From contig NZ_JACKUK010000026.1 in assembly GCF_025822765.1 (NCBI RefSeq), positions 1 to 64,000 of the forward strand: a DNA stretch of 64,000 bases, written 5' to 3'. Positions 10,610 through 24,372 of this stretch are shown piece by piece (within the stretch, counting starts at the first letter, position 1; every line of letters begins with the position of its first letter). The notes below the pieces were generated by a model. The model made no database searches, was not told where the DNA came from, and saw nothing but the letters and a program-made list of their open reading frames with translations. Origin of the DNA: Mycobacterium barrassiae. Lineage in GTDB: Bacteria > Actinomycetota > Actinomycetes > Mycobacteriales > Mycobacteriaceae. The position numbers were made by a program, and so were the translations under genes.

Positions 10610-11086
10610 TTGCCCGTCGCGAAGACCTGGTTCGACGACAGACACTTCGATGGCGGCATCCGGTTGATAACCGAACGGCACGCGCATTCCTATGTGCGCT
10701 GCAACATCTGGCACATCCGCGGCGTAGATAGAGACCTCGTGGTCGACGCCGGGCTCGGGGTCTCGTCGCTGCGCGCCCATTTTCCGGCACTATTCGAAAG
10801 CGAGCCCGAACTGTTCCTTACACACGCACACCTCGACCACATCGGGGGAGCACACCAATTCACCGTCTGCTACGCACACCGAGCGGAGTCGGCACACTCA
10901 CCCCAACCTGGATCACTGCGACGCGATGAACTCATTGCGCTCTTGGAACTCGACGTCGCCGAACCAGAAGTCGTCGCCATGCCTGACGTCCTAATCGACG
11001 CCCTTCCCGATCCGAACTTCGATGTTCACGGGCCAACTCGTGGGCTCGCGGCCTTCCGTTGCGGCGGGTTCAGTTTCACCGGCTAA
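10610..11086 (+). pseudogene. C-terminally truncated metallo-beta-lactamase-fold hydrolase
   Basis: The 158-residue frame starts at a TTG (MPVAKTWFDD); no ATG or GTG lies in frame upstream. It contains the MBL signature LTHAHLDHIGGAH near residue 85, so the first zinc site is intact. It ends at FRCGGFSFTG*, just before the expected HTPGHSPG and GD(A/V)L metal-ligand strands. About 100 residues of a normal MBL hydrolase are missing. The break falls immediately before the left island repeat, suggesting that insertion or rearrangement cut the gene. I saw no remainder of the gene beyond the right repeat or beyond the IS element. Confidence 0.6.
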
Positions 11087-11122
11087 CCAACTTGGTAAAC
11101 AACTAGGGGTCGTTTGTTAATT

Positions 11123-11336: not shown

Positions 11337-12485
11337 TCAGCTGCCGACGATACCTTTGTCCGGCGTCCATACGGGAATGCCAGAGTCCTTGGGAGGCTTG
11401 ATGATGAACCCTACGCTGTGCCGAGCCCGAGTGACCGCTACGTAGAGATTCGCTGCCTGCTGGTCATTTAGCTTCTTTGCCTTGGTTATGAGCTTGTCAA
11501 TAGGGCCGGTGGGATGAATCAGGACTCGCGGTCGCTCCAGTCCTTTGGCTTTGCCCCAGTTCAGGCACTCGAGGTGGTCATACTGCTTGCCGCTTGCCTT
11601 GCTGCTACGCAGAAGAATTGGATGATGGCGGGCGTCATACTCATCGACATGGTCTGGTGCGATCAGGAAGATCCCATCGTGGTCGGTGCGAACTGTGTTG
11701 AGCGATACCGTCGGTTCGAATCCCCACTCGGGACCGAACAATGAATCGGCGAATGCTGCGATCTCTGGTGCGCATCGCCAAGTTTCGCGTCGTTGCTCGA
11801 TGGCCAGGCGCCCGGCCTGTTCCTGCGCCTGAAACCATTTCCAGATTTTCATGTACATGAACGGCTTGTGTTTGGCTTCACGCTGGTTGGTGGCCAAGAT
11901 GGCCTGACGAATGTCGCCGACCATCTCGAGGGTGACCGTCGATGCCATCAACAGGTCCAGGATCTCCAGGTCATACCCGCACAGATCCTGGACCTCATCG
12001 ATCATGATCCGGTCGTAGACCCGTCGGAGTCGCTGCAGGCAGGTCCCCTCCCCAGCCTGATTGATGCGCACCGCCAACTCCGGGAGGTGCACGCGCCTGA
12101 CTTCGCCATATTCATTGATGTATCGCTGCCAGCCACCAGCGGCTGAGTAGGTCTGGGGTGGGCTGTCGAAGTCGAAACCTTCGACACGCCTGCCCGGAAA
12201 CATCAAGGGGAGGAAGGGGTAAACGAAATTCTGAAGCAGGAATGAAAACCAGCCACCAACCTCGATATGGGGGTGGTCACCGGCCAGCCGGTCCAACCTG
12301 GTGGAAAGCTCGCGCTGGTTATAGTTCGTGTAAGTGAGGACCAGGATGCGCTCGCTCGGATCCGCCGCTTTGCAGGAATCCACCAGTCCCTGGGTCTTTC
12401 GGGATCCGGCGACCGCGAGCGTGAGCCGATTACTGGGCTGAGTTATCAACGAAGGCAATCGCTTCAGTGATGTAGCTCGGCGCAT
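11337..12485 (-). CDS. gajB: UvrD/Rep-like helicase, GajB-like partner of the OLD nuclease
   Basis: The 382-residue protein is a compact superfamily 1 helicase. Visible motifs are a P-loop AVAGSRKTQ near residue 25, ILVLTYTNYNQREL (motif Ia region) at 47-60, Walker B MIDEVQDL at 161-168, EQRRETWRCAPEIAAF near 225, and the motif VI stretch NLYVAVTRARHSV near 340. The P-loop has Arg where the second Gly is expected. It overlaps the 3' end of the nuclease gene by 56 nt if the ATG at 12485 is used; TTG codons at 12458 or 12449 are alternatives. With the upstream OLD-family gene this is the Gabija arrangement, an anti-phage system; it is shorter than described GajB proteins. Confidence 0.7.
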   Translation of the reverse strand: MRRATSLKRLPSLITQPSNRLTLAVAGSRKTQGLVDSCKAADPSERILVLTYTNYNQRELSTRLDRLAGDHPHIEVGGWFSFLLQNFVYPFLPLMFPGRRVEGFDFDSPPQTYSAAGGWQRYINEYGEVRRVHLPELAVRINQAGEGTCLQRLRRVYDRIMIDEVQDLCGYDLEILDLLMASTVTLEMVGDIRQAILATNQREAKHKPFMYMKIWKWFQAQEQAGRLAIEQRRETWRCAPEIAAFADSLFGPEWGFEPTVSLNTVRTDHDGIFLIAPDHVDEYDARHHPILLRSSKASGKQYDHLECLNWGKAKGLERPRVLIHPTGPIDKLITKAKKLNDQQAANLYVAVTRARHSVGFIIKPPKDSGIPVWTPDKGIVGS

Positions 12486-14061
12486 TGAGCGTCTTGTCGC
12501 TCTCCAAGATCCTCAGCGCACCCTCGGTTTTGTTGTTGTCCATCCAGGTGGCTAGGACCGCCTTCGCGGTGATTGCCAGCACCTTACGTACCGTCTTCTC
12601 GTCGTTGGCGTGCACGATCTGAGGCTCTAGCGTGTTGCCCTGACCGAACGCTCCGATGAAGACTCCGCGGTCATCGTTGAGATACTCGGCGAGGTCCTCG
12701 AGTAGTTCGGCCGGGTCGTTTCCGTCGTTGTCGCGCAGCACAGCACATCGCGTCCCGAGCGCCTGAACCAGCCGCAGGCAATGCTTCAATGACAGTGCAC
12801 GCATACTGATTACGTCGATCCCGTCATCAATGGGTCGCCGGCCATCATGTGTATTCATATAGAACCGTTCGACGACGATCTCGTCGGACGGCCCCTCGAC
12901 GAGGATCAGCCGCCCGGCCAAAGCCATTCGCAGTGTGTCGTATCCGGGCAACTTCTTGAAGTAGGCGACGGTATCCGCTGGGAGTGCGCCGAGCGCGGTG
13001 ATGCCACTTTCTCCGACCAGTTGCAGGCCATCCAAACCGATCCGGTTGAGGACGTAGGAGCTGTGTGTAGTTATAAGTAACTGTTGATCGTCGCCGGCGA
13101 GATCGGCGATTCGGGCAAGTAGCTTGTTCAGATTCGTGTGGGAGAGGTGGTTTTCGGGCTCTTCGATCATCACCACCTGTATCGCCGACGCTGTACGTCC
13201 CATGGCCAGCGCAATTTTGATCGCGGCCTGTTGGCCTTGCCCAGAAAGCAGGAACGGGACTGCGGCGACATGCGGGATCACGCTGGAATCCCAGGCGCCA
13301 CGGCCCGTCTGATCCATGGCGAGCTCTAGCGGTTTATCGTCCAGTGGCCCGGGCAGCTCAGCCATCTTTTCGTTCACCGCCTGCAGGTGCGGGGACGCCA
13401 GTGTGTCGCGGTTGGCGCGCACGGCTAGCGACACCTTCGCCTTATCGGGGGCCTCGAGGTGATCGTTGAGGATCTGTTTGAGGTGGACGTCCATCCCACT
13501 GTTCGATCGGATGGTGCGCGAATCAATGACGGCAGTCGTCAGCTCCTTCGGACGTGCTGTCAGCGTCTTGTTGGAGAACGTGCGCCAGTCCACGCGGTAG
13601 TACTCCACAGGCAGCGACGACGGTCCATCAGCATCTGCGCCCAGTCCAGCTAGGTAGGCCTCGATCTCATCGCCGTAGTCGGGATCGGGCTCAACTCTCA
13701 GGCGGATGCCCGCGCAAGCCCTAGTCGGCTGCTCTGAATTATTGGCACCGAACAGATTCCGCTGGAATTCATCACGGTCGTAGAGAAATACTTCGATTTC
13801 GATCGCTGGTGGCGCCGGTGTCTCACCCTTGGCCCTCGCGGCGAAGAACTCCTTCACCACGGGGGCGTTGAACCAGAACGGATTGACCTCGTCACTGGCT
13901 AGTCGTCCATTGATCCGCCCCGTCAGCGCCAAGGTGATTGCCTCGAGCAGGGTCGACTTCCCCGCGTCGTTGTCACCGACGAGAATGTTCAGGCGTTGGT
14001 GGGGCTCGAAGTTCAACTCGCGAAACTTGCGGTATCCCAGCACCCGCACACGCTCAATCAC
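12430..14061 (-). CDS. gajA: OLD-family ATP-dependent endonuclease, GajA-like
   Basis: 543 residues from the GTG at 14061, chosen because GGGGAC lies 6-7 nt upstream and because the ATPase begins VIERVRVLGYRKF. ABC-type ATPase motifs are the Walker A GDNDAGKST (29-37), a signature LLSGQGQQAA (about 271-280), Walker B VVMIEEPENHLS (about 296-307) and the H-loop TTHSSYVL. A C-terminal TOPRIM domain follows: ILVEGPSDEIV (Glu389), LRDNDGND (Asp444, Asp446) and LEPQIV (Glu479). This is the ATP-gated nickase/nuclease of the OLD class paired with a UvrD-like helicase. Gabija nucleases degrade DNA when nucleotide pools fall during phage infection. All catalytic residues appear intact. Confidence 0.8.
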   Translation of the reverse strand: MIERVRVLGYRKFRELNFEPHQRLNILVGDNDAGKSTLLEAITLALTGRINGRLASDEVNPFWFNAPVVKEFFAARAKGETPAPPAIEIEVFLYDRDEFQRNLFGANNSEQPTRACAGIRLRVEPDPDYGDEIEAYLAGLGADADGPSSLPVEYYRVDWRTFSNKTLTARPKELTTAVIDSRTIRSNSGMDVHLKQILNDHLEAPDKAKVSLAVRANRDTLASPHLQAVNEKMAELPGPLDDKPLELAMDQTGRGAWDSSVIPHVAAVPFLLSGQGQQAAIKIALAMGRTASAIQVVMIEEPENHLSHTNLNKLLARIADLAGDDQQLLITTHSSYVLNRIGLDGLQLVGESGITALGALPADTVAYFKKLPGYDTLRMALAGRLILVEGPSDEIVVERFYMNTHDGRRPIDDGIDVISMRALSLKHCLRLVQALGTRCAVLRDNDGNDPAELLEDLAEYLNDDRGVFIGAFGQGNTLEPQIVHANDEKTVRKVLAITAKAVLATWMDNNKTEGALRILESDKTLNAPSYITEAIAFVDNSAQ

Positions 14062-14640: not shown

Positions 14641-15690
14641 GTGGGCGGCAAGAGTCCAAGCGCCGACGACGTCGCCTCTTTCGAGTACGACCTGGTCGAC
14701 AGCGCAACAGCGTTCCTCACCCGGTCAGTCCAGACGATGGGCGACGACTCCACAGGCCACTCTGCACCGTTCGCGATCGCTGATCTGGCGACCGCAGTCG
14801 AGGTTCTGATGAAGGCCCGCCTGATCCGCCACGACTGGGTGCAGGTGTGTACGAACCTAAACAAGTGGTCGTTCAACGACCTGAAGAACGGTAACGCGAA
14901 AACCGTTGCACCAGAAGAAGCTGTCGACCGACTAGCGAATGTCGCCGGTGTCAACATGGACCGACACAGCCGCGACATTAAGAGTTTCGCGCGCCTGCGT
15001 AATCGCGCTGTGCACCTCACCTTGACTACGCAAGGGGAACAGCCCCTCGGCGTTCAAGCCGAGTATGGGCGCGCCTTGGACTTCGTGCTGTCGTTTCTCG
15101 GCGCCGAGTTCCGCGGGCCGGACATCGGTGACGACATCGCCGCGGCCGTCGATGAGGTCATAGAAACCCTCACTACCGAGGTGGGCCAAATACACGCGTT
15201 AGTCGATGCGCGGATGGCCAGTTTGGCCGACGAGCTGGGGCGCGCCGAGGTGCGGCTAGTCTGTCCTCGCTGCGACCAGCCGGCACTGTTGCTGGTGCAT
15301 GACTCCACGGCGCGCTGCGCGTTCTGCCTGTGGAGTCCTGATGATGGACGCACCGCCGCCGAAGAGTACGTCGATATGGTGTTGGGTCGGTCCCGATACG
15401 AGTCAGCTCAGGACGGCGAACCCTATCCGGTCGAGTATTGCCTCGACTGCGGGTGCGAGGCGCATGTGGAGGGGCTAGAGCCTATTTCAGACGATAGGCC
15501 AAGCCTGCTGCAGCAGATAACCGACGATATCGTGCTCCCGGCTTACTGGGGGTGCTTCAGTTGTGGAAGGACAGCGGATTCAACTGGCCTCGATCGATGC
15601 ACTCGCTGTGGCACTCTGACCGCAGTCAGCACCGGTGGTGGTGTTCCTATCTGCACCGACTGTTTTGCCGGGATCGTGTCTACCGGCTGA
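14641..15690 (+). CDS. HEPN-motif protein with multiple zinc knuckles
   Basis: This 349-residue protein starts at a GTG preceded by AGGAGGG. The helical N-terminal half (residues 15-200) holds RNRAVH at 120-125, an exact RNxxxH, the catalytic signature of HEPN ribonucleases. The C-terminal half carries six cysteine pairs: C208/C211, C226/C229, C267/C270/C272, C305/C308, C320/C323 and C338/C341, suggesting three zinc ribbons. HEPN RNases often act in abortive infection or toxin-antitoxin systems by cutting RNA. No separate nucleotidyltransferase antitoxin is adjacent. Its place next to the Gabija pair suggests a defence role, but the family is not one I can name. Confidence 0.65.
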   Translation: MGGKSPSADDVASFEYDLVDSATAFLTRSVQTMGDDSTGHSAPFAIADLATAVEVLMKARLIRHDWVQVCTNLNKWSFNDLKNGNAKTVAPEEAVDRLANVAGVNMDRHSRDIKSFARLRNRAVHLTLTTQGEQPLGVQAEYGRALDFVLSFLGAEFRGPDIGDDIAAAVDEVIETLTTEVGQIHALVDARMASLADELGRAEVRLVCPRCDQPALLLVHDSTARCAFCLWSPDDGRTAAEEYVDMVLGRSRYESAQDGEPYPVEYCLDCGCEAHVEGLEPISDDRPSLLQQITDDIVLPAYWGCFSCGRTADSTGLDRCTRCGTLTAVSTGGGVPICTDCFAGIVSTG

Positions 15691-17826: not shown

Positions 17827-18213
17827 ATGGTGCTCCTGGCCACGAACATCGATCGGATCTTGGCCGGATCTCGCGTTGATGCCCGTGGATTGTGGGCTAG
17901 CGAATGCAAGATCTGCGCAGATGGATGGTGGTTTCGGCGGTGCCGCGGCGTCTCAGACACCGACCTTGAGTTGAGCATATGGCTCGGCAATCATCGTCTG
18001 GTGACCGGTTGCCCGACCGGCCTACGGCCTGACGCCGGAGGTCACACGTGTGCACTTACACGCCATCCGGAGGCCCGTCCAGGCATCGGCAGCCCGCGAC
18101 GGGATGGTCGGACCCAGGCTTCGCGGGCAGTGCACGGCGGGTGTTCGATCTCGTTGTGTCGACCTGCTCGCGTCCTTGCCGCCCGACAGGTCGACAGGGT
18201 ACGTGACGCGTGA
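17827..18213 (+). CDS. Hypothetical protein
   Basis: A 128-residue frame from an ATG (MVLLATNIDRILAGSR). It has scattered cysteines (CKICADGWWFRRC, GGHTC, GGCSISLC) but no clear zinc motif or known domain, and the arginine-rich tail is weakly protein-like. It is kept because its stop overlaps the next start in a GTGA arrangement, which is common between coupled genes here. It may instead be chance. Confidence 0.4.
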   Translation: MVLLATNIDRILAGSRVDARGLWASECKICADGWWFRRCRGVSDTDLELSIWLGNHRLVTGCPTGLRPDAGGHTCALTRHPEARPGIGSPRRDGRTQASRAVHGGCSISLCRPARVLAARQVDRVRDA

Positions 18214-18827
18214 CTAGCCGCAATGATCTCGAGGAACTCATGCGTGCCGATCGGCTCAACGCTTGGCCTGTCCGCTTACGCATGTGCCGGATGTTTGGCT
18301 CGCGCGCGTGGTGGTCGGTTGTTCCCAACGCCGATGAGTTGGCGCGGCGTGACGCGCACCCGGTTCGAGCAATCAAGCGGCTCGATGTGGCAGCAGTTTT
18401 GTTGAGTCTTCCGATGAACTTGCCGGTTCCTGAGGACTCGCTACGCCCGAAGGAATTGCGCTTGCTCTCGAGCTTGCCGTCATGTCTCGTCGAGCGAGTC
18501 GACGGCGCAGTAGTGAGGCGAACGTCATCTCCAGTGACAGTCGATCATGTTGTCTTGCCGACCAAGACCTTTCGGCCGGGACTTGAGGCCGTGACAGAGT
18601 TCTCTACTTACTGCGCCAGATCGATGGTGATTCCGGCCGGTACCGATCTAACGGAGATCGAGCTTGCGGAAGCGAGTTACTACGGCGTCGGAATCTACAG
18701 GGCTGATGGCGACTCACTCCTAGAGTTGGTCGCCCCGGAGCCGATGGACGGCTGGCCGGAGACACCTGCGAGCTGGATATTCGCCGAGACTCTTTGGGAT
18801 GAGCTTGGTCCGCTCGGATGTAGCTAG
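18210..18827 (+). CDS. Hypothetical protein
   Basis: A 205-residue frame starting GTGACTAGC. The sequence has ordinary amino-acid composition and the C-terminal VTEFSTYCARSMVIPAGTDLTEIELAEASYYGVGIY looks folded. No family is recognised. It runs convergently with the TGT-like gene, whose stop is only 24 nt away. A role as an accessory of the island is only a guess from its position. Confidence 0.55.
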   Translation: MTSRNDLEELMRADRLNAWPVRLRMCRMFGSRAWWSVVPNADELARRDAHPVRAIKRLDVAAVLLSLPMNLPVPEDSLRPKELRLLSSLPSCLVERVDGAVVRRTSSPVTVDHVVLPTKTFRPGLEAVTEFSTYCARSMVIPAGTDLTEIELAEASYYGVGIYRADGDSLLELVAPEPMDGWPETPASWIFAETLWDELGPLGCS

Positions 18828-18851: not shown

Positions 18852-20156
18852 TCAGGCGGGAAGTTCGGCCCACGCACTGAATGCAGGCCGAGGACGCAAG
18901 GGTTTTGCGCGCCGAAGCTCCTGCGATAAGTACTCATACTCGGCAATTCGGCCTTGGCAGAACGTCTTCCAGAACGCACCTCGGTCAGCGATGCTTTCCT
19001 TCTCGGCGATGATCTTGGACCATTCCTGCCAGACCGCTACGCCGTGAGCCCGCGCATCGGCAGAGTCGTCTTTGGACAGGAAGCGGTCGATGCGCCGACC
19101 GTCACAGGCGGCACATTGACAAGTAGGGGCCGGCATACGGCCGTACTCGGCCGCGATCTTGCTGCCGCGCCACCAGCTGGCCAAACGTTTGTACAAGACC
19201 GACGGTGATTCGTCGTCGCGATTGATCGATTTGGGTTGCTCATCAGGGTCGACAGCGTGTCGCATGCTGCCTCCGCTTCCGATGGCCGCGGCGAATCCGC
19301 CGTGGCACATGACATCAAACGCGTTGAAGTCAGTGCGGAATGCCGCCACGTGGGCCGGTCCCGCGGTGAAGGCCCGCAGCGCGCTGATGCGCCGCTTGGC
19401 GTTCGAGTCGAATGGGTCAAGCTGGCTGGCCAGTATGAGCGCGACCGGAACCATGAGGTCGTTGAGTATCGTCCAGACCCGCAACGTGAGCGATGTGTCG
19501 TCGAGAATCGCCGCGTCAAACGGCACCGTGAAAATGAAATCATTGCGGCTGAGTTGCTGCGCTTGCTCGGCGGCGACTTCCAACGCATCGATACCGTCCG
19601 CCCGGATCAATCCAGTCGGTGTCAGTGCGACGTCTACGCCCAGTGCCCGCTGGTCCGAGAGGTTTTCGTCAAGCGTTTCAGCGAGCATGTCTTGACGCTC
19701 GAAGTGAAACGGCGCAGCTGTGGTTGCGACATGCCGTCGATATCCCTCTGGATCGAAGACCACGGGCGCATCGAATCCGCGCTCGGGCAGCCCCACCATT
19801 ATCTCGCGCAGATTCGTCCGATTGGTCATGCGTCCACGGCTCAATACCAGGCCACTAGTCGTCTCATCGATGTAGGGAAGTACCGCCTCAAGCTGAGCAC
19901 CGGCCGAGGTTTGGACGAGTATCCGATCCATGAGCAGCCCGGCTGTGCCCTCAGGCGTCCCACGTTGAATCAGCCCGGACGGCGCGGCCGAATCTCGCAC
20001 TCGTGGTCGATCAGCGGTGGTGACGCGCCAACGTGGCCGCCTTGTGGGACCGTGGGCGCGCGCGGCATCGGTCGCCCCGCGATCTGCCACCGACATGGCA
20101 CGCTCGGCGCTCGGCGATTTCGCCTTAACCCCGTCAGTATTCTGGGCAGCAACCAT
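18852..20156 (-). CDS. Third gene of the HigBA module: probable TIM-barrel protein with a TGT-like zinc signature
   Basis: 434 residues from an ATG with AAGGAGG upstream. After about 60 disordered residues come alternating strands and helices (MDRILVQTSAG, SGLVLSRGRM, APVVFDPEGY, GVDVALTPTGLI, NDFIFTVPFD, VPVALILASQLD), as in a TIM barrel. Near the C-terminus CQCAAC (C346, C348, C351) with His371 copies the CxCxxC...H zinc site of tRNA-guanine transglycosylases and the phage-related DpdA enzymes. VMCHGGFAAAIGSGGSMRH at 282-300 may be a substrate loop. It lies 16 nt after the HigA-ImmA gene, so it is probably co-expressed. Base or nucleotide exchange is a hypothesis; no TGT active-site aspartate could be assigned. 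Confidence 0.55.
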   Translation of the reverse strand: MVAAQNTDGVKAKSPSAERAMSVADRGATDAARAHGPTRRPRWRVTTADRPRVRDSAAPSGLIQRGTPEGTAGLLMDRILVQTSAGAQLEAVLPYIDETTSGLVLSRGRMTNRTNLREIMVGLPERGFDAPVVFDPEGYRRHVATTAAPFHFERQDMLAETLDENLSDQRALGVDVALTPTGLIRADGIDALEVAAEQAQQLSRNDFIFTVPFDAAILDDTSLTLRVWTILNDLMVPVALILASQLDPFDSNAKRRISALRAFTAGPAHVAAFRTDFNAFDVMCHGGFAAAIGSGGSMRHAVDPDEQPKSINRDDESPSVLYKRLASWWRGSKIAAEYGRMPAPTCQCAACDGRRIDRFLSKDDSADARAHGVAVWQEWSKIIAEKESIADRGAFWKTFCQGRIAEYEYLSQELRRAKPLRPRPAFSAWAELPA

Positions 20157-20171
20157 TCGGGCCTCCTTATC

Positions 20172-21299
20172 TCATTCTGACGCCCGGTCGGGACATTCCT
20201 CGGTCGACGCGGCCAAGGTGTACCGGACCTTGAGAGACTGCCCGACGTGGAACCCGACGATCTTGTCGTGTTGGAGCCGGCCCACGACGATTCCCGGTGA
20301 CACACCGATCCGCTCGGCGAAAGCTTTCATGGCCGCGATGGAAGTCAGTCCCGCCAATTCTGGGGCGTACTCGTGCGGGATGAGCAGATTTCTGGCGAGA
20401 TCGTCTGCCTCCCTCTCCTTGTGTCCATACGCGTGGCGGTCTGTGCTGCCGTCGCTGATGAACACGTCTTTCTTGCCGTGCAGCACAACGTGCGCCAACT
20501 CGTGGAAGAACGTGAACCAAAGTTGATCGTCGGTACCGAAGCGCAACGACAGCTGAACCACCGGTCGGCCGCGCACCCATCGGGCGGCCCCCGAGCAGCG
20601 CGCGCCTCGGACCTCTGGAACGAAAACCACTGCAACACCACATTCGGCAGCGACTCGCACCATCTCGTCGACAAAGACCGCCGGGTCCGGTTCGCGAGTC
20701 AACGCCCTCAGCGCGGGGAGGCTAGCGCGTAACCGCAAGGCATTGAACTCGGCCACCTCGAGATTGTCGGCCTCCAGCTCGCCGAGTCGAAGCCATGCAG
20801 CGACCGCTCCGGGGTGCGACGCGAAAGCCGGCGATTGCCGTAGCGCTGCCGCCTGTTGCCCAAGCCAAAGTCTGCGCCATGCATCAGGATCAGATACTCC
20901 AAAAAACTCCAACAGCTGGCGTACCAAACCCGCCTTGTCTCGCGATGGTGCTGTCAACATTCCTAGCTTGCGCAACGCGCTCACCGGCATCTCGGAGAGC
21001 CAGTCGGTATGGCTTTCGAGGTCCGCACGCCGCGCGACACGCGCACGGTCGTCCTGATAGAGCGCCTCGAGGTTGTTCCACGTTCGCGCTGGAACGCCGG
21101 TAACCAGTTCCAATTTCGCCGCAGTCGCCCGCGTCAACGGCGCGGCGCCGGTAACGATCTGACTCAGCGCCTTCTCGCTGATGTTGATTCGAGATGCAAG
21201 TTCGGCCTGCTTCATCCGACGCTCCTCAAGCCACTCAGCCAATGTCTCACCCGGCGCGACGGCATAGTCGGGCTCAAGCGGTTCGCTGGTCATGTTCAT
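20172..21299 (-). CDS. higA: HigA-type antitoxin fused to an ImmA/IrrE-like metallopeptidase
   Basis: 375 residues. The N-terminal part (15-75) is a HigA/Xre HTH: GETLAEWLEERRMKQAELASRINISEKALSQIVTGAAPLT. A helical middle leads to an ImmA/IrrE peptidase domain with the zinc motif HELAH (266-270) and a downstream EREADDLARNLLIP helix supplying the third ligand. Proteins of this build can neutralise a toxin, repress their own promoter and be cleaved or activated under stress. GAGGAGG precedes the ATG at 21299. It follows the toxin gene by 18 nt and precedes the TGT-like gene. Confidence 0.85.
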   Translation of the reverse strand: MNMTSEPLEPDYAVAPGETLAEWLEERRMKQAELASRINISEKALSQIVTGAAPLTRATAAKLELVTGVPARTWNNLEALYQDDRARVARRADLESHTDWLSEMPVSALRKLGMLTAPSRDKAGLVRQLLEFFGVSDPDAWRRLWLGQQAAALRQSPAFASHPGAVAAWLRLGELEADNLEVAEFNALRLRASLPALRALTREPDPAVFVDEMVRVAAECGVAVVFVPEVRGARCSGAARWVRGRPVVQLSLRFGTDDQLWFTFFHELAHVVLHGKKDVFISDGSTDRHAYGHKEREADDLARNLLIPHEYAPELAGLTSIAAMKAFAERIGVSPGIVVGRLQHDKIVGFHVGQSLKVRYTLAASTEECPDRASE

Positions 21300-21317
21300 T
21301 TCCTCCTCTCGCTGTGC

Positions 21318-21647
21318 TTAGTGGGTGTCAAAGATGCCGACGACGATCATCGCCTTTGTCAAGGCCCAGTCGATCCCGCCATCGTCGGTCAGCGGAGCAG
21401 GATCCTTCGGGCGCACCAGGAGGCGGTACGGATGATCGAGATCACCCGACATATGGCCCTTCCAATTTCCCAGTAGCGCATGCCATCGCCCCGGCAACGG
21501 CAAGAGATCGACCGCACAATCGACCGCGCGCAACGCCGCCAACCGCACTGAAAGCTTTCGAGCGCGCAATGACCCAAGCTCGCGGGTCATTGCTGAACGC
21601 TTGGTCACCAAGCGTTCCAGCGCACGGTCAGCGAAGTCGATCTCCAC
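21318..21647 (-). CDS. higB: HigB-type (RelE superfamily) toxin
   Basis: 109 residues from a GTG. The sequence EIDFADRALERL...RARKLSVRLAALRAVDCAVDLLPLPGRWHALLGNWKGHMSGDL, then PYRLLVRP and IDWALTKAMIVVGIFDTH, matches HigB of host-inhibition-of-growth loci. HigB toxins cut mRNA on the ribosome. The Shine-Dalgarno AGGAGG sits inside a 19-bp palindrome, so the cognate HigA could block transcription, or the hairpin could limit translation. Order toxin-antitoxin is normal for higBA. Confidence 0.85.
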   Translation of the reverse strand: MEIDFADRALERLVTKRSAMTRELGSLRARKLSVRLAALRAVDCAVDLLPLPGRWHALLGNWKGHMSGDLDHPYRLLVRPKDPAPLTDDGGIDWALTKAMIVVGIFDTH

Positions 21648-21652
21648 TTTTT

Positions 21653-21671
21653 GTTTACCTCCTAGGTAAAC
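21653..21671. promoter_or_regulatory. Palindromic HigA operator overlapping the higB ribosome-binding site
   Basis: Perfect 8-bp arms GTTTACCT and AGGTAAAC are separated by CCT, directly before the higB GTG. On the minus strand the centre supplies AGGAGG. This is the expected site for autorepression by HigA. Confidence 0.65.
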
Positions 21672-22080: not shown

Positions 22081-22863
22081 TTATTGTGCCGTGTTGTCGG
22101 CTCTGGCGGAGGGCAAGGTGTCGATCCCAGTGTCCTTGAGCCTGTAGCTGGAACCTTTGAGGGTCAGGACGTCGGCGTGGTGCACGATGCGGTCGATCAT
22201 CGCGGCCGCGACGACTTGGTCGCCGAATACGTCGCCCCAACGGGCGAAGGGCAGGTTTGAGGTCAGGATCAGCGAGGCGTGTTCGTAGCGGCTGGAGACC
22301 AGTTGGAAGAACAGGTTCGCGGCGTCCTGCTCGAAGGGGATGTAGCCGACCTCGTCGACGACGAGCAGCCCGATCCGGCGCAGCTTGGCCAGCTCGGCGG
22401 GTAGTCGCCCGGCATTGTGGGCGGCCTTGAGTCGGGCGACCCAGTCCACCGCGGTAGCGAATGCGATGCGGTGCCCGGTCTGGGCGGCTTTGATGGCCAA
22501 CCCGATGGCCAGGTGGGTCTTGCCGGTGCCCGGCGGCCCCAACAGCACAATGTTGCGGGTCTTGGCCAGGAACGCGCCGGTGCCCAGGTGGGCGATCATG
22601 TCCCGGTTGAGAGCGGGTTGGTGATCGAAGTTGAAGTCCTCCAACGACTTGCGGGTCGGAAACCCTGCCGAGCGGATACGGGTCGCCGCACCGGAGGCTT
22701 CACGCGCGGCGACCTCCCGGGAAAGCACCGCCGCGAGATACTCTTCGTGAGTCCAGCTGGCATCACGGGCTTGGGCGGCCAGTCGGGCGGCCGAGTCGCG
22801 GATACGTGGCGCTTTGAGCGCTTGCGCGTAGTGCAGGACGGCCTTCATCGGATCCTCGGCCAT
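22081..22863 (-). CDS. istB: IS21-family helper ATPase IstB
   Basis: This 260-residue DnaC-like AAA+ protein has Walker A LLGPPGTGKTHLA near residue 105, Walker B LLVVDEVGYIPF near 170, and the sensor ILTSNLPFARWGDVF near 200. IstB assembles on DNA and directs the IstA transposase to target sites. The length is normal and no disruption is seen. It starts two bases after the istA stop, the usual coupled layout. Confidence 0.95.
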   Translation of the reverse strand: MAEDPMKAVLHYAQALKAPRIRDSAARLAAQARDASWTHEEYLAAVLSREVAAREASGAATRIRSAGFPTRKSLEDFNFDHQPALNRDMIAHLGTGAFLAKTRNIVLLGPPGTGKTHLAIGLAIKAAQTGHRIAFATAVDWVARLKAAHNAGRLPAELAKLRRIGLLVVDEVGYIPFEQDAANLFFQLVSSRYEHASLILTSNLPFARWGDVFGDQVVAAAMIDRIVHHADVLTLKGSSYRLKDTGIDTLPSARADNTAQ

Positions 22864-22865
22864 GC

Positions 22866-24107
22866 TCAGGCCACCTCATCACTGGACGTGACTGCGGCAG
22901 TGGTGAAGTCGACACCGAAAGCACGGTCGTAGTCGCTCAGGTCGCGCACCAGCTGATCACCGACCACCGACGGCGGGCCGGCTTGGAACTGGTGACGCAA
23001 CGCCGCGGCGGTCGCAACGTGGGCCGGGTCGGTCAGGGTTTGTCGCGCCGCCCAACAGCGGCCATGGGTCGCCAACAGGCGCCCGGCCCTACTCACTCTC
23101 ACCTGAGTCAAGGTGGTGCTCACGTCGACGAGTTGGCCGATCGCATTCGGATCGACGGAGTAGTCGTTGCCGGCCACCCGCACGTAGTAGTCGCGTCCCA
23201 GCCGCACCGAAGTCACTGTCTCGACGGTCGGCGACACCGGTGGCAGTGCCAGCATCTGGGCACGGTCGGCGTCGAGGAAGTCGACCGGACGACCATCCAG
23301 TACCCGCACCCGACGCCTGTTCGCGACCGGAAGCCATTGCCCCAGTTGATCATTGAAGTCATCGGGTGAGGTGAAGCTGCGCCCGGGCAAAAATGAGGTC
23401 TCCAAGTACCGGTTGGCTCGCTCGACCATCCCCTTGGATTCGGGATCATAGGGTTTGAGCTGCACCAGCCGCGAACCCAGCGTACCCATCAGCGCGGTGA
23501 CCGGATCGGTCAACCGACCCCGGCGTCCTATCCCGGCCTCGTTGTCCCACCACAACTCATGCGGTATCGCAGCGAAACTGCCCGAGAGCAGCTGCCACAT
23601 CCCGGCCACCAAATCCATCGTCTGACGTGAGGGCAGCATCACCGCGGCGATGAACCGGGAGAACGCGGCCACCATCACCAACACCGGCAGCATCGCCTCC
23701 TGGCCGAACCCGACCGCGATCCTGGGTGCCGGGAACCACAGGTCGCACTGCACCACCCGCCCCGGCGGATGCGCCAGCCGGTCGACCGGATCGGCGGGCA
23801 GATACTCCGGGCGGATCGCCCGGACCCGCTCCCGAAACCACGAGATCGAACCCGTCCAGCCGACCCGCTCAGCGAGCACCGTCGCCGGCAGCTGCGGATA
23901 CGTCGATAACAAGGCCCGAATCCCGGGCTCCACGGCGTCGATCGCCGACGGCGACGAGGCCCGCTCGTACTTCGGTGGCCCATCGCAGGCCAGCGCACCG
24001 GCCACGGTGTCACGTGCGATGCCGAGTTGCCGCGCGATGGCCCGCTGCGACAAACCCTCACTGCGGTGAAGATGCCGGATCAACGCCCAGTCTTCCAAGG
24101 AGATCAC
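22866..24107 (-). CDS. istA: IS21-family transposase IstA
   Basis: About 413 residues from the GTG at 24107; an in-frame TTG at 24140 lies inside the terminal repeat and is less likely. An N-terminal HTH (HLHRSEGLSQRAIARQLGIARDTVAGAL) binds the ends. The DDE integrase core has VVQCDLWFP, ELWWDNEAGIG and the downstream PYDPESKGMVERANRYLETSF with the catalytic Glu. A C-terminal Mu-transposase-like segment (VRVAGNDYSVDPNAIG) follows. The gene is full length. Confidence 0.9.
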   Translation of the reverse strand: MISLEDWALIRHLHRSEGLSQRAIARQLGIARDTVAGALACDGPPKYERASSPSAIDAVEPGIRALLSTYPQLPATVLAERVGWTGSISWFRERVRAIRPEYLPADPVDRLAHPPGRVVQCDLWFPAPRIAVGFGQEAMLPVLVMVAAFSRFIAAVMLPSRQTMDLVAGMWQLLSGSFAAIPHELWWDNEAGIGRRGRLTDPVTALMGTLGSRLVQLKPYDPESKGMVERANRYLETSFLPGRSFTSPDDFNDQLGQWLPVANRRRVRVLDGRPVDFLDADRAQMLALPPVSPTVETVTSVRLGRDYYVRVAGNDYSVDPNAIGQLVDVSTTLTQVRVSRAGRLLATHGRCWAARQTLTDPAHVATAAALRHQFQAGPPSVVGDQLVRDLSDYDRAFGVDFTTAAVTSSDEVA

Positions 24108-24372
24108 CCATCCAATCTGATCGGGTGGCCTACTTTTCAACCGTCGCGACTGGCCGGACTTTCAACCGTCGTCAACACGCACCACACGGCATCCCGCCGC
24201 AGCCGCGCCTTCTGGAGTCACCGACTCCCTGATCCCCTGCTGTACCAGACAATCGAGAGTCTCCTTCGGCGTGGGCTAGTTCGCAGGGTCAGTCGACCAA
24301 CGTTCGACATCTGACACTCTCGGGCTGAACACATGCGGTTCGGCCGCCTGGATTTGTGGTTTTCCCGCAGCA

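What the first reader, a model, noticed from the sequence alone, without database searches (positions are those of the whole stretch)
18852..21671. Three-gene HigB / HigA-ImmA / TGT-like zinc protein module
Seen: a HigB toxin, an antitoxin fused to an HExxH metallopeptidase, and a third gene 16 nt downstream with a strong ribosome-binding site. The third protein has TIM-barrel-like alternation and a CxCxxC...H zinc signature (C346, C348, C351, H371) like tRNA-guanine transglycosylases and DpdA. Known: HigB cuts mRNA on ribosomes, and ImmA-type peptidases respond to stress. Inferred: the third protein might modify or sense a base, nucleotide, tRNA or DNA, making this a tripartite stress or anti-phage system. 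I know of no described system of this composition.
Basis: partly seen in the sequence, partly recalled or inferred. Interest (0 to 1): 0.78.

Follow-up and report, generated by a model that had tools for sequence, protein, structure and literature searches.

The report
Toxin-antitoxin defence module with borrowed parts
A bacterial toxin, its protease-armed antidote and a zinc protein sit in one operon that looks like a known kind of anti-phage defence, but the zinc protein and an overlooked neighbouring gene form a little-known pair that seems to belong to a different defence family.

Summary
The trio is real, on the minus strand: HigB-like toxin (B), HigA fused to an ImmA/M78 peptidase (A), and a 434-aa zinc protein (C) 15 nt downstream. 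The composition is not undescribed: PD-lambda-2 is HigB / HigA-peptidase / third protein, and PADLOC's PD-Lambda-2_B model hits A at 3.5e-28. But the third protein there is Beta-like, and C is not. C belongs to an unnamed family. The ImmA-type genes of the three C-linked relatives tested score as RmrA (RosmerTA). The window therefore looks like a hybrid: a PD-lambda-2-type front end in the place of RmrA, ahead of a C-D pair, near Gabija-like genes and an IS21 element. C gives a low-confidence TIM barrel; its zinc tail resembles TGT, its barrel does not detectably. TGT/DpdA membership is unproven. Abortive phage defence is inferred by analogy, not shown. New variant of a known kind.

The parts
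21653..21671 (.). perfect 7-bp inverted repeat GTTTACC-N5-GGTAAAC overlapping the HigB ribosome-binding site; candidate HigA operator
   Evidence: one exact copy; at up to 2 mismatches 2 in the window against 0.02 expected; operator role inferred
21318..21647 (-). gene B: HigB-like (RelE family) toxin, 109 aa, GTG start
   Evidence: Pfam 0.021, below cut-off; PHROG TA toxin 1.8e-5; relatives upstream of HigA-ImmA genes elsewhere
20172..21299 (-). gene A: HigA-like HTH fused to ImmA/M78 metallopeptidase, 375 aa
   Evidence: PADLOC PD-Lambda-2_B 3.5e-28; RmrA at best 5.5e-10; HigA 2icp 7.5e-5
21087..21242 (-). HTH domain of A (residues 20-71)
   Evidence: HTH_3 2.6e-8
20274..20573 (-). HExxH peptidase domain of A (residues 243-342)
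   Evidence: Peptidase_M78 1e-10
18852..20156 (-). gene C: 434-aa zinc protein, TIM-barrel-like, unnamed family
   Evidence: no Pfam, NCBIfam or PADLOC hit; family; fold, low confidence
19044..19121 (-). codons spanning C346-x-C348-x2-C351...H371, the probable zinc site of C
   Evidence: C348, C351 invariant, C346 and H371 90% or more, in 39 sequences; tail resembles TGT
18210..18827 (+). gene D: 205-aa protein convergent with C (24 nt between stop codons); fourth member of the module; start codon uncertain
   Evidence: relatives convergent with C in 21 of 34 C loci; best model pLDDT 81; weak PD-(D/E)XK likeness

Best explanation
A mobile, TA-like anti-phage (abortive infection) module assembled from two known kinds. 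The front end is a HigB/HigA-ImmA pair of the PD-lambda-2 type, in which the two proteins hold each other in check and the HigA part represses the operon. The back end is the C-D pair, which elsewhere follows RmrA-like proteins, the HTH-ImmA antitoxins of RosmerTA; C stands in the partner position that RosmerTA systems give to their toxin RmrT. Most likely C is the effector or trigger partner read by the ImmA-type protein, and infection releases both C and the HigB/HigA-ImmA pair, so that translation stops. Shown: gene order, family assignments, the different front end, the conserved zinc site, the conserved convergent D. Inferred: neutralisation, which protein is toxic, the trigger, the activities of C and D, and phage defence.
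For: PADLOC PD-Lambda-2_B hits A at 3.5e-28. PD-lambda-2 is reported as an abortive-infection system of HigB / HigA-peptidase / a third component needed for defence (passages of PMC9519451). C lies directly downstream of an ImmA-type gene, same strand, in 15 of 34 loci, from genomes of the family of Actinokineospora to an Arthrobacter plasmid with a zeta-toxin gene nearby. That gene scores as RmrA in 3 of 3 relatives tested, of 14: L041 6.7e-55, L138 5.5e-55 and L126 1.7e-58. RmrA antitoxins pair with different toxins and RosmerTA gives phage defence (passages of PMC10440598). The window also has GajA/GajB-like genes at 1.8e-188 and 2.9e-108 and an IS21.
Against: No functional data for C, D or this operon. 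In PD-lambda-2 it was the HigA-peptidase protein whose overexpression was toxic, and the HigB-like protein rescued it, so the classical roles may be reversed here. The hybrid is a single case: HigB with C in 1 of 34 loci; among 198 genomes of the genus only the own one has an intact C. 11 of 34 C loci have neither A nor D, which argues against an obligate lethal toxin. No PADLOC model hit any of 14 C proteins; whether PADLOC holds RmrT models was not checked.
Confidence: 0.45

Rival explanations
1. C is a sensor or accessory rather than an effector: like PD-lambda-2C it is needed for defence but not for neutralisation, and the HigB/HigA-ImmA pair alone does the damage.
For: PD-lambda-2C is required for defence but not for neutralising the toxin. 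C fills the same third slot, 15 nt after A. C occurs without A in 19 of 34 loci and without A or D in 11.
Against: 14 of the 15 loci with A have no detectable HigB, so something else would have to be the effector there. C is unrelated to Beta by profile (hhalign probability 0.2 and 1.2).
Confidence: 0.25
2. Chance neighbour: an ordinary mobile HigB/HigA-ImmA addiction pair landed upstream of C (perhaps with the IS21), and C plays no part in it.
For: 0 of 23 other HigA-ImmA loci carry C or D within the flanks fetched. HigA-ImmA pairs sit beside quite different cassettes on plasmids. Only one hybrid is known.
Against: The pair stands in the place where other C loci have their ImmA-type gene, in operon orientation, 15 nt from C with a good ribosome-binding site; C follows an ImmA-type gene in 14 other loci.
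Confidence: 0.18
3. C is a TGT/DpdA-type transglycosylase that swaps a base in tRNA or DNA, and the TA pair guards this modification system.
For: The C profile ranks TGTs in the first five places among 626 non-C genes; 5 of 7 PDB profile hits are one TGT family (QTRT1) around the zinc site, E 0.77-0.92; TGT 1s38 is Foldseek rank 3, E 5.9e-4, and the two TGT rows have the highest TMq of the 50 listed, 0.35 and 0.36. HigA-ImmA relatives lie beside thymidylate synthase plus aGPT-Pplase3/ADDT genes, a DNA-hypermodification family, on 3 plasmids.
Against: The barrel alone gives no TGT enrichment (p = 1) and the signal shrinks when the four ligands are masked (p = 5e-5, TGTs not independent). The best PDB profile hit, at 0.14, is an aldolase, not TGT. 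hhalign with TGT gives probability 1.7. No Pfam TGT match. A TGT is found in 3 of 15 C-bearing genomes; QueC matches in 13 of 15, but full-length in 5, so there is no shared 7-deazaguanine supply. The barrel model is poor and matches many unrelated barrels.
Confidence: 0.1

Closest known systems
PD-lambda-2 (E. coli anti-phage system, PMC9519451)
   Same: HigB-like protein first, HigA-like HTH fused to a peptidase second, third gene in the operon; A matches PADLOC PD-Lambda-2_B
   Different: third protein is the zinc protein C, not Beta-like; extra convergent gene D; no activity shown
RosmerTA (RmrA HTH-ImmA antitoxin with diverse RmrT toxins, PMC10440598)
   Same: in relatives C lies directly downstream of an ImmA-type gene that scores as RmrA in the three tested
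   Different: the window's own A scores far better as PD-Lambda-2_B than as RmrA and brings HigB; C matches no PADLOC model; I know of no described D-like part
Toxin-antitoxin-chaperone (TAC) modules, higBA with a SecB-like chaperone
   Same: three genes with higBA
   Different: C is a zinc, barrel-like protein with no family match, not a recognised SecB; A carries a peptidase (SecB likeness of C was tested only by the Pfam and NCBIfam scans)
tRNA-guanine transglycosylase / DpdA
   Same: CxCxxC...H zinc signature after a probable TIM barrel; weak profile similarity of the tail
   Different: no sequence relation of the barrel found by the tests made; no Pfam TGT match; DpdA itself was not compared

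Membership tests
PD-lambda-2 | HigB-like toxin as first gene | tested here: met
   (Pfam itself below cut-off)
PD-lambda-2 | HigA-like HTH fused to a peptidase as second gene | tested here: met
   (PD-Lambda-2_B 3.5e-28)
PD-lambda-2 | third gene of the Beta / PD-Lambda-2_C family (P4 antitoxin relative) | tested here: not met
   No PF14350 or PADLOC hit for C; hhalign with Beta 0.2 and 1.2; Beta proteins do hit PD-Lambda-2_C in 5 of 5 given
PD-lambda-2 | abortive defence needing the third gene | not testable with these tools
   needs phage assays
RosmerTA | RmrA-type HTH-ImmA antitoxin | tested here: inconclusive
   window A: RmrA 5.5e-10 against PD-Lambda-2_B 3.5e-28; C-linked relatives: RmrA 6.7e-55 to 1.7e-58 in 3 of 3 tested
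RosmerTA | toxic partner RmrT | not testable with these tools
   toxicity of C unknown; no PADLOC hit in 14 C proteins
TGT/DpdA | CxCxxC...H zinc site | tested here: met
   resemblance of the tail beyond the ligands is slight
TGT/DpdA | TIM-barrel fold | tested here: inconclusive
TGT/DpdA | match to the TGT family model over the barrel | tested here: not met
   (no PF01702 at E<=1), (barrel p = 1)
TGT/DpdA | catalytic aspartate pair at TGT positions | tested here: inconclusive
   Asp135 and Asp276 are nearly invariant but the model is too poor to place them
PD-(D/E)XK nuclease fold (for D) | fold match | tested here: inconclusive
PD-(D/E)XK nuclease fold (for D) | conserved D...(D/E)xK active site | tested here: inconclusive
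   no such motif stands out by eye in the alignment of 21 D proteins

The most novel reading that the evidence does not exclude
C (zinc TIM barrel with a TGT-like tail) and the convergent D (PD-(D/E)XK-like) form a base-marking and base-sensing pair, a new kind of self/non-self system, whose ImmA-type front end is exchangeable: RmrA-like in other carriers, a complete HigB/HigA-ImmA killer in this genome.
Probability: 0.1. Interest if true: 0.78.

Novelty: new variant of a known kind. Interest (0 to 1): 0.5.

Why it matters
It suggests that the ImmA-peptidase proteins of two separately described phage-defence families (PD-lambda-2 and RosmerTA) are interchangeable in front of the same partner, and it points to an unnamed, conserved convergent gene pair (C-D). 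That makes a testable question of how ImmA-type antitoxins sense infection: the same C appears to be read by two different ones.

Tried and rejected
TGT by profile: hhalign of 39 C sequences with 16 TGTs gave probability 1.7; a TGT profile run the other way put two other genes ahead of the first C. Beta family as third gene: rejected. Of 20 Beta loci (L021-L040) none shows A, B, C or D within the roughly 1.5 kb of flank. Plasmid and phage collections with C: no match; with the relative L005: one plasmid. First genome-contig scan with C alone: nothing. IMG/VR: two scans, no relative. Of the papers I read passages of two; the others, the one hit included, were seen only in listings. Promoter scan for sigma-70 sites: none. 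Limits of the neighbour count: the flanks fetched are those of the better matches, not of every match; several loci come from one genus. Dropped before the count of 34: L058 (doubtful), L059 (fragment), L064 and L065 (same loci as L041 and L139). The first HigB profile was a single sequence and missed small genes upstream of A in some HigA-ImmA loci; a ten-sequence profile again found HigB in 1 of 34 C loci, and in 14 of 23 HigA-ImmA loci, nine of which had helped to build it.

Full report
Observation. The gaps are 18 and 15 nt, with GGAGG-type sites before the starts of B, A and C. A carries HTH_3 and Peptidase_M78. B is a weak Pfam HigB (0.021, under cut-off) but a PHROG TA toxin (1.8e-5). 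C has no Pfam, NCBIfam or PADLOC match at E<=1. A perfect 7-bp inverted repeat overlaps the B ribosome-binding site, as one would expect of a HigA operator (inference).

Known composition. PADLOC assigns A to PD-Lambda-2_B at 3.5e-28. [quoted passage not shown] unexpectedly the second protein alone was toxic and the first rescued it. So the claim that no such composition is described does not hold. PADLOC's PD-Lambda-2_C models hit 5 of 5 Beta (PF14350) proteins that I gave; they hit none of 14 C proteins, and C is not related to Beta by hhalign. The third slot is filled by something else.

The C family. Genomes with a match, own included: 4 of 100 near relatives, 18 of 397 of the order, 4 of 396 of the phylum (only four candidates scored per genome, so a floor). 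With the relative L005 as query: 43 of 249 genomes of the family of G388. These counts include fragments and weak hits. Named carriers are Actinokineospora inagensis and Actinosynnema pretiosum and an Arthrobacter agilis plasmid. Of 198 genomes of the genus, three match: the own one, a short 62%-identical fragment in G015 and a doubtful hit in G049.

What travels with C. I fetched flanks for 34 C loci (window, L041-L057, L126, L138-L152) and scored them with profiles of A, B, C and D. An A-type gene is upstream on the same strand in 15 (one, L149, weak at 0.0023). D is present in 21 (L152 weak at 0.001) and convergent in 21 of 21; the stop codons overlap in 16, and in L146 C is split over two frames. 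A and D together: 13; A only: 2 (in L057 the contig ends just after C); D only: 8; neither: 11. B is found in the window alone, with a one-sequence profile and with a ten-sequence profile. With D as query, 43 of 278 genomes match; the 4 hits below 1e-20 (window, G094, G208, G207) have C in the 1.5 kb next to them, and of the 26 other fetched loci, partial matches to the C-terminal half of D, none has C nearby. So C-D is a real pair, but D-like proteins also occur without C.

Two kinds of ImmA-type gene. Those of L041, L138 and L126 score as RmrA at 6.7e-55, 5.5e-55 and 1.7e-58; the other eleven were not scanned. The window's A scores RmrA at best 5.5e-10 and PD-Lambda-2_B at 3.5e-28. Eleven other HigA-ImmA relatives of the same genus and 12 of the 65 plasmid records found have C or D in 0 of 23, but HigB in 14 of 23. 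The simplest reading is that a HigB/HigA-ImmA pair stands in the place of RmrA in front of C-D.

Mechanism. By analogy with PD-lambda-2 and RosmerTA (passages of PMC10440598), the operon is most likely an abortive phage-defence module in which an ImmA-type protein holds a toxic partner in check. I commit to C as the effector or trigger partner in the RmrT position, with the HigB/HigA-ImmA pair as a second, translation-stopping arm in this genome (0.45). That HigB cuts mRNA on ribosomes is recalled for the family, not tested. Which of B and A is toxic here is open, since PD-lambda-2 showed the reverse of the classical roles. GajA/GajB-like genes in the window fit a defence island.

Novelty. New variant of a known kind: known parts in a new combination, with an unnamed third family and a newly noticed fourth gene. 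The searches gave no paper that I could tie to C or D, within an open-access library and without a name to search by.

Noticed in passing
window 11337-14061, minus: Gabija-like pair: GajA-like (PADLOC 1.8e-188) and GajB-like (2.9e-108) genes.
   Followed up: partly
window 22081-24140, minus: IS21-type transposase and IstB pair just upstream of the operon.
   Followed up: no
window 14641-15690, plus: Protein with PADLOC HEC-08 and DUF3644 matches at 1.1e-15 and 9.9e-14.
   Followed up: no
window 11082-11100: A second, imperfect copy (2 mismatches) of the palindrome at the higB start lies at the end of the ORF 10610-11086, about 240 nt from the GajB-like gene.
   Followed up: no
L176, L178, L182, L187 and L131: HigA-ImmA genes lie divergently next to multiubiquitin and ThiF genes in 4 of 12 plasmid loci, and next to Multi_ubiq, ThiF and DUF6527 proteins in a relative of the window's genus (L131).
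   Followed up: partly
L181, L183, L184, L185: HigA-ImmA genes have a thymidylate synthase gene close by on the opposite strand in 4 of 12 plasmid loci; in L181, L183 and L185 the protein between them is aGPT-Pplase3/ADDT, a thymine-hypermodification family.
   Followed up: partly
L128: HigB/HigA-ImmA sits among genes that look by eye like a type I restriction system.
   Followed up: no
L042 8160-8480; L138 5141-5422; L144 4980-5258: A small gene lies upstream of D; in L042 (opposite coordinates, same strand as D) and L138 it matches winged-helix families weakly; in L144 it was seen only by eye and lies on the other strand.
   Followed up: partly
L059 (G015): Fragment 62% identical to the zinc region of C in another species of the genus, a likely remnant.
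   Followed up: no
L192-L217: D-like proteins without C nearby (26 loci) match only about the C-terminal half of D; three scanned have no Pfam family above cut-off.
   Followed up: partly
L046-L056: Lone C relatives without A or D, two of them (L048, L049) in similar chromosomal neighbourhoods, with the zinc motif kept; they may be the non-defence ancestors of C.
   Followed up: no
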